The notes under the pieces: generated by a model
Databases searched by the model: none
What the model was told of the DNA's origin: nothing
What the model saw: only the letters and a program-made list of their open reading frames with translations
Assembly (NCBI RefSeq): GCF_034343125.1
Contig: NZ_CP139957.1
Span: 1,263,001 to 1,327,000, forward strand
DNA: 64,000 nt
Direction of reading: 5' to 3'
Source of the DNA: Caldicellulosiruptor danielii
GTDB lineage: Bacteria; Bacillota; Thermoanaerobacteria; Caldicellulosiruptorales; Caldicellulosiruptoraceae
Shown here: positions 395 through 16,842 of the stretch, piece after piece
Layout: the number at the start of each line of letters is the position of its first letter
Position numbering within the stretch: the stretch's first letter is position 1
Program-made: the position numbers and the translations under genes

Positions 395-1768
395 TTATTT
401 TTTTAAAAAAAACTTTAGATTATCAATTTGTTTTCTTACACTCTCTATCGAAGTTCCGCCATAGCTTTTTCTCCGGTTTACGCAGGTTTCAATCTTTATA
501 AATTGATATACATCCTCTTGAATCTTCTCACAGAATCTTTTATATTCCTCTAACGATAAGTCTTCTAATATTTTCCCGCTTTCAATGCAGTACTTTACAA
601 TGTTTCCTACAATAAAATGTGCATCTCTAAAAGGAATGCCTTTTGTTACCAAATAATCTGCAAGGTCTGTTGCATTGATAAATCCAGATTTGCAAGAACG
701 CTCCATGTTTTCTTTGTTAATTTTGAGAGTTTTGAGTATTTCATTTATTATTACTAAACTCATTTCTACTGTTTCAATGGAATCAAATAAAAATTCTTTG
801 TCCTCCTGCAAATCCTTGTTATATGAAAGAGGCAGACCTTTTAGTACTGTTAAAAGTCCAATCAAGTTTGCATATATTCTTCCTGTCTTGCCGCGGATTA
901 GCTCCAAAGCATCAGGATTTTTCTTTTGTGGCATTATGCTGCTGCCTGAGCAAAAACTATCGTCAAGTTCAATAAATTTAAATTCATCAGTATTAAAAAT
1001 GATAAAATCTTCTGCAAGTCGAGAAAGATGCATTTGAATCATAGCAAGTGAGAATAACATATCAAGAATAAAATCCCTGTCAGAAACAGTGTCGATACTG
1101 TTTTCTGTCACATTTTCAAAACCAAGTTCACTTGCTACAAAAAATCTGTCTATTTCAAATGTTGTTCCTGCCAAAGCAGCGCTGCCAAGCGGGTTGTAAT
1201 TTGTCATGCTGTAGTTTTGTCTTAGTCTTAACAAATCTCTTTTTAGCATTTGAGCATATGCAAGAATATAATGAGAAAAAAGTATGGGCTGAGCCTTTTG
1301 AAGATGAGTAAACCCCGGCATAATTACATCAATATTTTCTTCGGCTAAGTTTACAATTGTGTTTATTAGCGTTTTTATCAGTTCTTGAAGATACAAATTC
1401 TTTTCACGACAAAATAGTCTCTCGTCAAGAGCAACTTGGTCGTTTCTGCTTCTGGCAGTATGAACTTTTTTGCCAACCTCTCCTATTCTCTTTATGAGCT
1501 CTTTTTCAATCAGCATGTGTACATCTTCATCAGAAATTTCATATTCAATTTTTCCTAATTTAAAGTCTTCTAATATTTGATAGAGACAATCTATGATGAG
1601 TTTTGCCTCATCCTCAAGGATAATATTATACTTTGCAAGCATTTTAACGTGGGCAACAGACCCAAGAACGTCGTATTCGAAAAGTTTTATATCAGTCATG
1701 ATAGAAGCATTAAAAAGGTCAAATATCTGCGCTGTAGACTTTGAAAATCTTCCTTCCCAGAGCTTCAG
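395..1768 (-). CDS. argH: Argininosuccinate lyase, probably starting at CTG
   Basis: Cleaves argininosuccinate to arginine and fumarate, the last step of arginine synthesis, in the cytosol. The lyase signature GSSIMPQKKNPD lies near residue 280 and carries the catalytic serine loop. The first ATG (1697-1699) would remove the conserved N-terminus. Upstream of it the frame encodes KLWEGRFSKS and FDLFNASI, the family's usual opening. No ATG, GTG or TTG codon lies in that stretch. CTG at 1766-1768 sits 9 nt after AAAGGAGG and 1 nt after the argG stop, giving 457 aa, the normal length. The product is certain; the CTG start is inferred from conservation and Shine-Dalgarno (SD) spacing. Confidence 0.95.
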   Translation of the reverse strand: MKLWEGRFSKSTAQIFDLFNASIMTDIKLFEYDVLGSVAHVKMLAKYNIILEDEAKLIIDCLYQILEDFKLGKIEYEISDEDVHMLIEKELIKRIGEVGKKVHTARSRNDQVALDERLFCREKNLYLQELIKTLINTIVNLAEENIDVIMPGFTHLQKAQPILFSHYILAYAQMLKRDLLRLRQNYSMTNYNPLGSAALAGTTFEIDRFFVASELGFENVTENSIDTVSDRDFILDMLFSLAMIQMHLSRLAEDFIIFNTDEFKFIELDDSFCSGSSIMPQKKNPDALELIRGKTGRIYANLIGLLTVLKGLPLSYNKDLQEDKEFLFDSIETVEMSLVIINEILKTLKINKENMERSCKSGFINATDLADYLVTKGIPFRDAHFIVGNIVKYCIESGKILEDLSLEEYKRFCEKIQEDVYQFIKIETCVNRRKSYGGTSIESVRKQIDNLKFFLKK

Positions 1769-11158: not shown

Positions 11159-11335
11159 ATGGCACAACCAAAAAGAAGATGGTCAAAACAAAGAACACAT
11201 AAACATAGAGCAAATTGGAAATTAGAAATTCCGAATCTTACAGAGTGTCCACAGTGTCATGAGATGAAACTTCCTCACAGGGTATGTCCAAATTGCGGGT
11301 ATTATAGAAATAGAAAAGTTGTAAACCAAGACTAA
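11159..11335 (+). CDS. rpmF: 50S ribosomal protein L32
   Basis: A small gene of 58 codons opening MAQPKRRWSKQRTHKHR, the L32 N-terminus, with a zinc ribbon of two CxxC pairs (CPQC near 30-33 and CPNC near 43-46). This is the zinc-binding form of L32, which in zinc-limited Firmicutes may be swapped for a cysteine-free paralogue. AAAGGAAAT precedes the start. It is cotranscribed with yceD from the consensus promoter and followed by a terminator. Confidence 0.97.
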   Translation: MAQPKRRWSKQRTHKHRANWKLEIPNLTECPQCHEMKLPHRVCPNCGYYRNRKVVNQD

Positions 11336-11336
11336 C

Positions 11337-11375
11337 AAAATAGCCCTGATTTATTTTCAGGGCTATTTTACTTTG
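11337..11375 (+). terminator. Terminator after rpmF
   Basis: A 13-bp stem, AAAATAGCCCTGA with TCAGGGCTATTTT (11337-11349 and 11357-11369), a 7-nt loop and a T-rich end. Confidence 0.85.
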
Positions 11376-11440
11376 AGTACATAAAAGGTATTTCAATTGT
11401 AATAAAAAAGTGATAAATTAATAGAAAAGGGTGATAAAAA

Positions 11441-12040
11441 CTGATCAAAAGAAAAATAAGGAAGATTATAGGAATCAGACGAAAATTAGTTGAACCAAGG
11501 AAAAAGTTATATCTTGATATACTGGCATACAGAAACCTAAAAAAATTTCTTTCAACCCTTGAGTTTCAAACCGTTTTTACTTATATGAGTCTTCCATATG
11601 AAGTTGATACCAAAAGAATTATTGAATATCTTATCAAAAAAAATAAAAAGCTCTGTATACCTAAGGTTGTAAATAATGTAGAAATGGTAGCATGTGAGTA
11701 CAAAAGAGAGGAAAAATTTCACAGAAATAAGTTGGGCATCTTAGAGCCGTCAAGCGCGCAGCAAGTACCTCCATCACAAATAGATGTCTGTATTGTACCC
11801 ATTGTTGCATTTGACAAGGATTTAAACAGAGTGGGATTTGGCAAAGGATACTATGATAGATTTTTGAAAGATGTAAGCCCATATTGTATAAAAGTTGGGG
11901 TTGCTTACCACTTTCAGAAGGTAAAAAGAATCAAAACAGAGGAACATGACGTAAAGCTTGATGTAATTGTGACTGACAGGCTTATCTTATTGCAAAAAAA
12001 TGAATATAGGGGAGAATATGATGAGAAGAATACTACTTAA
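11441..12040 (+). CDS. 5-formyltetrahydrofolate cyclo-ligase, probably starting at CTG
   Basis: Converts 5-formyl-THF to 5,10-methenyl-THF with ATP. The C-terminal substrate and ATP site GFGKGYYDRFL is present, as is PIVAFDKDLNRVGFG. The first ATG (11585) lies in the middle of the conserved TYMSLPYEVDT segment and would delete about 48 residues. Upstream the frame encodes the basic helix IKRKIRKIIGIRRKL typical of the family and runs back to a TAA at 11435. The only plausible start in that interval is CTG 11441, 7 nt after AAAAGGGTG. This gives 199 aa, close to the usual length. Confidence 0.9.
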   Translation: MIKRKIRKIIGIRRKLVEPRKKLYLDILAYRNLKKFLSTLEFQTVFTYMSLPYEVDTKRIIEYLIKKNKKLCIPKVVNNVEMVACEYKREEKFHRNKLGILEPSSAQQVPPSQIDVCIVPIVAFDKDLNRVGFGKGYYDRFLKDVSPYCIKVGVAYHFQKVKRIKTEEHDVKLDVIVTDRLILLQKNEYRGEYDEKNTT

Positions 12041-16593: not shown

Positions 16594-16842
16594 ATGGAAA
16601 ATGAAAATGTATACGAATACAAAAATGGTGACTATATAGTAGTCAAGGCACTTGAAAACGGAGTAAATGTGATAGGGCTGACAAGAGGCAAGGACACAAA
16701 ACTTCATCACACAGAAAAACTTGATAGTGGTGAAGTTTTACTTGCTCAATTTACTGAAGTTACGTCGGCAATTAAGGTAAGAGGTAGGGCAGAGATCTAT
16801 ACAAAATTTGGGCTTATTGTTTCAGAGTCCCAGAATAAATGA
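16594..16842 (+). CDS. mtrB: TRAP, tryptophan-activated RNA-binding attenuation protein
   Basis: An 82-aa protein that aligns almost without gaps with Bacillus [29 protein letters not shown] and [18 protein letters not shown] forms an 11-subunit ring that binds GAG/UAG repeats in trp leader RNAs when loaded with tryptophan. The RNA-contact residues equivalent to Bacillus K37, K56 and R58 are K42, K61 and R63. The tryptophan-contact residues Q47, T49 and S53 correspond to Q52, T54 and S58. SD is AAGAGGTGAG. No trp gene or anti-TRAP gene is in the window, so its target is elsewhere. Confidence 0.93.

What the first reader, a model, noticed from the sequence alone, without database searches (positions are those of the whole stretch)
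11429..11587. Cyclo-ligase gene also appears to start at CTG
The frame is open from a TAA at 11435 and has no standard start until the internal ATG 11585, which would delete about 48 conserved residues. CTG 11441 is the first codon but one after the stop and follows AAAAGGGTG at 7 nt. A second CTG start in 64 kb suggests that this organism uses CTG initiation more than usual. Automatic annotation would give a broken-looking gene.
Basis: partly seen in the sequence, partly recalled or inferred. Interest (0 to 1): 0.52.

Follow-up and report, generated by a model that had tools for sequence, protein, structure and literature searches.

The report
Folate-enzyme gene starting at CTG
The gene for a folate-recycling enzyme (5-formyltetrahydrofolate cyclo-ligase) in this bacterium very probably begins at the rare start codon CTG, and so do its counterparts in seven related species, but the organism does not appear to use CTG starts unusually often.

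Summary
The frame is a full-length 5-formyltetrahydrofolate cyclo-ligase (TIGR02727, 159.9 bits, cut-off 84.9). Comparison strongly supports CTG as the start. Of 12 same-genus genomes, 8 of 8 in one clade have CTG at this position, an in-frame TGA four codons before, and the same SD; 4 of 4 in the other clade have TTG; the same-family outgroup has ATG. Residues 2-48 evolve like protein (pN/pS 0.23); downstream standard codons are not shared and pair weakly with anti-SD. The window's other CTG start is argH; its start position is CTG or ATT in 13 of 13 family genomes. Unusual CTG use is not supported: a comparative scan of 379 orthologous ORFs found no CTG start among 313 outside the window, and a strong SD precedes CTG no more often than CTA or CTC. 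Initiator tRNA looks normal. No protein evidence was available. A well-conserved new example of a known rare phenomenon.

The parts
11441..12040 (+). 5-formyltetrahydrofolate cyclo-ligase CDS, 199 codons from CTG plus stop
   Evidence: PF01812 133 bits and TIGR02727 159.9 bits over nearly the whole profile; orthologues in 11 other same-genus genomes
11441..11443 (+). CTG start codon
   Evidence: CTG in 8 of 8 clade-A genomes, TTG in 4 of 4 clade-B, ATG in the same-family outgroup G012
11425..11433 (+). Shine-Dalgarno AAAAGGGTG, 7 nt before CTG
   Evidence: anti-SD duplex -9.9 kcal/mol; AAAGGGTGA shared by 12 of 12 same-genus genomes
11432..11437 (+). two in-frame stop codons TGA TAA just before the start
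   Evidence: the TGA is in frame in 8 of 8 clade-A genomes (read from the rows)
11411..11419 (+). putative extended -10 promoter element TGATAAATT; would give a leader of roughly 15 nt (inferred)
   Evidence: invariant in 13 of 13 aligned genomes. The consensus scan did not call a + strand promoter here, so function is inferred from conservation only
11334..11372 (+). terminator-like hairpin after rpmF, separating it from the cyclo-ligase gene
   Evidence: one search lists the stem on the - strand; the T-run reading on the + strand is mine; stem sequence conserved
11585..11587 (+). internal ATG (codon 49), first standard start codon; judged not to be the start
   Evidence: no SD (-0.3 kcal/mol); would remove 48 residues of the protein, nearly all of them inside the family profile
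395..1768 (-). argH (argininosuccinate lyase), second CTG start in the window, CTG at 1768-1766, SD AAAGGAGG, argG stop TAA 1 nt before CTG
   Evidence: PF00206 and PF14698; start position CTG in 6 and ATT in 7 of 13 family genomes, ATG in 5 of 5 outgroups

Best explanation
Translation of the cyclo-ligase gene starts at CTG 11441. The SD 11425-11433 places the codon in the ribosomal P site and initiator fMet-tRNA reads it by two of three base pairs, as for GTG and TTG, giving a 199-residue protein. The likely history is ATG or TTG in the family ancestor and a single T-to-C change (TTG to CTG) in the ancestor of one clade of the genus, kept in all eight descendants examined. Shown here: position, SD, in-frame stops, conservation of NTG at this site, coding-type evolution of residues 2-48. 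Inferred: use of fMet, low initiation efficiency, that low output is tolerated or favoured for this enzyme, and the direction of the codon change.
For: 8 of 8 clade-A genomes have CTG here while codons 2, 4, 7 and 9 vary among them; 4 of 4 clade-B genomes have TTG; G012 has ATG. An in-frame TGA four codons upstream in 8 of 8 excludes any in-frame upstream start. SD duplex -9.9 to -10.0 kcal/mol in clade A; next standard codons differ between genomes (ATG49, TTG28, ATG20, TTG16) with weaker SD pairing of -0.3 to -6.0. pN/pS over codons 2-48 is 0.23 within clade A and 0.30 between clades, like the rest of the gene. Residue 2 aligns with residue 2 of solved structure 1sou, and the Pfam and NCBIfam profiles begin at residue 3.
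Against: No peptide, N-terminal or ribosome-profiling evidence was available. In E. coli CUG is reported to give 0.86% of AUG output (PMC11497404, passages), so expression would be low. A toeprinted CUG upstream of Caulobacter dnaA proved not to be used in vivo (PMC8443254, passages). In G001, TTG at codon 16 has SD pairing of -6.0 kcal/mol.
Confidence: 0.93

Rival explanations
1. The protein starts at an internal standard codon (ATG 11585 in this genome) and is about 48 residues shorter.
For: It is the first standard start codon in the frame, and the one an annotation limited to ATG/GTG/TTG would pick (inference).
Against: Residues 2-48 are under purifying selection like the rest; the family profile covers them; no SD before 11585; other clade-A genomes have different first standard codons.
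Confidence: 0.03
2. Initiation at another near-cognate codon a few codons in (for example ATC codon 2 or ATA codon 6).
For: ATA at codon 6 is present in 12 of 12 same-genus genomes.
Against: Codon 2 is GTC in 7 of 8 clade-A genomes and CAA in clade B; codon 6 lies 22 nt from the SD, too far; clade B and G012 have TTG and ATG exactly at codon 1.
Confidence: 0.02
3. Translation begins at the GTG inside the SD (11431, another frame) and shifts frame into the cyclo-ligase.
For: In clade B this GTG is in frame with the gene (frame 0), and in 7 of 8 clade-A genomes its frame is open for 20 codons.
Against: In G003 its frame closes after 2 codons, upstream of the CTG; no SD of its own was apparent on reading the sequence.
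Confidence: 0.01
4. This organism initiates at CTG unusually often because its initiation machinery is lax (a claim about the organism, not exclusive of the best explanation).
For: Two CTG starts (cyclo-ligase, argH) in 64 kb; 2 of 379 ORFs is above the published 0.024% (P = 0.004), but the sample was built around these two genes and the published figure counts annotations.
Against: 0 of 313 ORFs outside the window (upper 95% limit 0.95%); SD score of at least 6.5 precedes CTG 0.13%, CTA 0.13%, CTC 0.13% of the time against ATG 0.57% and TTG 0.29%; initiator tRNA has the normal three G-C pairs.
Confidence: 0.05

Closest known systems
5-formyltetrahydrofolate cyclo-ligase (MTHFS, TIGR02727 / PF01812)
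   Same: Full-length match above both cut-offs
   Different: Start codon CTG instead of ATG/GTG/TTG
[quoted passage not shown] 2012, as cited in PMC4607533, one passage read)
   Same: A bacterial gene with a reported CUG start
   Different: Unrelated gene; the original paper was not read
infC (IF3) with a non-standard start codon
   Same: SD-preceded near-cognate start; in G000, G007 and G008 the likely infC start is ATA
   Different: infC is known for autocontrol through AUU (reference titles seen in PMC9845219); nothing here links cyclo-ligase to IF3 control

Membership tests
5-formyltetrahydrofolate cyclo-ligase (TIGR02727) | Score above the curated cut-off of 84.9 bits | tested here: met
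   159.9 bits, profile positions 1-181 of 182
5-formyltetrahydrofolate cyclo-ligase (TIGR02727) | Enzyme activity (ATP-dependent conversion of 5-formyl-THF) | not testable with these tools
   No assay
Bacterial genes initiating at CTG | No standard start codon that could serve, with SD at normal spacing before CTG | tested here: met
Bacterial genes initiating at CTG | CTG conserved as the start position across relatives | tested here: met
   CTG 8 of 8 clade A, TTG 4 of 4 clade B, ATG in G012
Bacterial genes initiating at CTG | Protein N-terminus or ribosome footprint at CTG | not testable with these tools
Regulated weak starts (infC type) | Weak start retained by selection | tested here: inconclusive
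   argH start position never ATG/GTG/TTG in 13 of 13 family genomes, but 10 of 13 have an in-frame ATG/GTG three codons upstream; for cyclo-ligase clade B has TTG

The most novel reading that the evidence does not exclude
In this family a small set of genes (infC at ATA, argH at ATT or CTG, cyclo-ligase at CTG) keeps weak start codons under selection, so that output responds to initiation fidelity (for example IF3 level). argH appears to switch between ATT and CTG without settling on ATG, GTG or TTG.
Probability: 0.12. Interest if true: 0.6.

Novelty: new member of a known kind. Interest (0 to 1): 0.3.

Why it matters
It is a clean, phylogenetically supported CTG start in bacteria, where CUG is put at 0.024% of annotated start codons (PMC11497404 and PMC9845219, passages) and gene finders limited to ATG/GTG/TTG would truncate the protein by 48 residues. 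Together with argH it gives a small test set for how near-cognate starts persist over species divergence.

Tried and rejected
Genome-wide excess of CTG starts: tested by comparative scans and by SD enrichment; rejected. One search tested 290 and 89 ORFs and flagged 8 and 3. I accept 3 (infC, argH, cyclo-ligase) and dismissed 8 on reading: positions inside a conserved protein (724, 510, 969, 1736, 747), or a standard ATG adjacent to the flagged codon (412, 818, 349). The scan sees only ORFs with an orthologue in the G008 stretches and can miss a CTG start with a usable standard codon close by; it recovered infC, a known kind of non-standard start, as a positive control.

Control in another family (G014 against G023): 88 ORFs, 1 flagged and dismissed (an ATG adjacent to an ATA), 0 CTG; too small to compare rates. 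In the same call G007 against G008 (275 ORFs) flagged 9, again with only argH and cyclo-ligase as believable CTG starts; a tenth-kilobase-from-the-end CTG/CTG flag (G007 ORF 318) was dismissed as internal to a short conserved ORF.

Lax initiator tRNA as a cause: the single exact match in the genome has the normal GGG/CCC anticodon stem; rejected as far as sequence shows. IF3 carries both Pfam domains; its residues were not examined further.

Papers: and listings gave nothing on this gene or genus; searches returned 0 papers for Caldicellulosiruptor with alternative start codon, argH with non-AUG and start codon, and cyclo-ligase with CTG start codon. These searches cover the open-licence PMC library only. 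The search for related loci gave only two distant loci. The SD table was not specific enough to use. The trees have poorly supported and conflicting branches, so the number of argH codon switches is not counted. One search read a wrong frame and was not used. Structure prediction was not run.

Full report
Observation. The sequence at 11420-11450 reads AATAGAAAAGGGTGATAAAAACTGATCAAAA. In the gene's frame two stops, TGA 11432 and TAA 11435, precede AAA and then CTG 11441. AAAAGGGTG ends 7 nt before CTG. The first standard start codon is ATG 11585. Every coordinate in the finding is right. Only 13 of 10373 CTG triplets in the surrounding 400 kb have as good an SD.

What the gene is. Read from CTG, the 199-residue protein matches PF01812 (133 bits, cut-off 27) from profile position 1 and TIGR02727 (159.9 bits, cut-off 84.9) over 1-181 of 182. 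In the phmmer alignment to the solved structure 1sou, residue 2 pairs with residue 2. It follows yceD and rpmF and a terminator-like hairpin, and precedes an HD-domain gene.

Relatives. A search of 41 genomes (own plus 40 relatives) found the gene in 18: 12 of the same genus, including the window's own, one other genus of the family (G012), and five more distant ones, which were not used for the start-codon counts. Loci from this tool keep the record's orientation; a first script overlooked that and was repeated correctly. At the start position the genus splits in two: CTG in 8 of 8 (clade A: G000, G001, G002, G003, G005, G007, G009, G010) and TTG in 4 of 4 (clade B: G004, G006, G008, G011). 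G012 has ATG. The TG of the codon is invariant in all 13, while codons 2, 4, 7 and 9 vary within the CTG clade. An in-frame TGA lies four codons before CTG in all 8. The SD block AAAGGGTGA is common to all 12 same-genus genomes, and G012 has AAAGAGGT in the same place. The upstream element TGATAAATT is invariant in 13 of 13 and may be an extended -10 promoter element; the consensus scan did not report a + strand promoter there.

Alternatives. Residues 2-48 have pN 0.035 and pS 0.153 (ratio 0.23) within the CTG clade, against 0.22 for codons 50-180, and 0.30 between clades, so they are translated protein. The next standard codon differs: ATG 49 (G000), TTG 28 (five genomes), ATG 20 (G009), TTG 16 (G001), with weaker SD pairing of -0.3 to -6.0 kcal/mol compared with about -9.9 for CTG. 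Starting at the GTG inside the SD and shifting frame is excluded in G003, where that frame closes after two codons.

The second CTG start. On the minus strand, argH (PF00206, PF14698) begins with CTG at 1768, behind AAAGGAGG and 1 nt after the argG stop (the upstream gene's name, argG, is recalled from the usual gene order and was not tested). The start position is CTG in G000, G001, G002, G003, G007 and G010 and ATT in G004, G005, G006, G008, G009, G011 and G012, 13 of 13 non-standard; 5 of 5 outgroups have ATG. A caution: 10 of the 13 have an in-frame ATG or GTG three codons upstream, abutting the SD; G000 and G010 lack it, and in G006 a stop follows it. So the non-standard start is compelled in three genomes and likely, by homology of the SD and the outgroup ATG, in the other ten. 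In ATT genomes the upstream gene's stop can overlap the ATT, read from the junction rows (clear in G005, G006 and G009; I did not work through the others).

Is CTG used more than usual? I compared stop-to-stop ORFs in 800 kb of this genome with 800 kb of G008, scoring any in-frame codon by SD in both genomes and by the boundary of protein conservation. Of 379 ORFs tested, 66 begin in the window. By my reading the only genuine non-standard starts were infC (ATA), argH and cyclo-ligase; 0 of 313 outside the window are CTG. The contrast of 2 of 66 with 0 of 313 (Fisher P 0.03) is what selection of the window by its reader would give. A strong SD precedes CTG (0.13%) no more often than CTA (0.13%) or CTC (0.13%), and less than TTG (0.29%) or ATG (0.57%). 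The initiator tRNA keeps the three G-C pairs whose disruption is reported to reduce discrimination against CUG (PMC11497404, passages).

Literature. CUG is reported as 0.024% of bacterial start codons (passages of PMC11497404 and PMC9845219) and as giving 0.86% of AUG output (PMC11497404). In 36 genome triplets, 1 of 2468 ancestral UUG and 2 of 61358 ancestral AUG starts became CUG (PMC5622118, passages). C. jejuni selD is cited as having a CUG start (PMC4607533, one passage). A CUG upstream of Caulobacter dnaA is a warning: seen in vitro, not used in vivo (PMC8443254, passages).

Identity.

Verdict. The CTG start is real to the limit of sequence evidence (0.93). It is a well-conserved new case of a known rare kind; the wider claim about the organism is not supported.

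Noticed in passing
window 1768-395 (-): argH start position is CTG or ATT in 13 of 13 family genomes and ATG in 5 of 5 outgroups.
   Followed up: partly
L029 about 7230 (G000:1222230), outside the window: infC appears to start at ATA behind AGGAGGTG in G000, G007 and G008.
   Followed up: partly
G000:1344997-1346657 (window coordinate about 81997-83657, outside the window): A gene resembling recN (name from recall) is split over two frames in this genome, while G007 has one ORF of 554 codons: sequencing error or broken gene.
   Followed up: no
window 16594-16836 (+): Tryptophan RNA-binding attenuation protein (TRAP, PF02081, 131.5 bits) shortly after the large ORF that I take for dnaE.
   Followed up: no
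genomes G014-G026 and G028-G036 (same class): No cyclo-ligase match at E <= 0.001 with this query in any of these 22 class relatives; absence or divergence was not separated.
   Followed up: no
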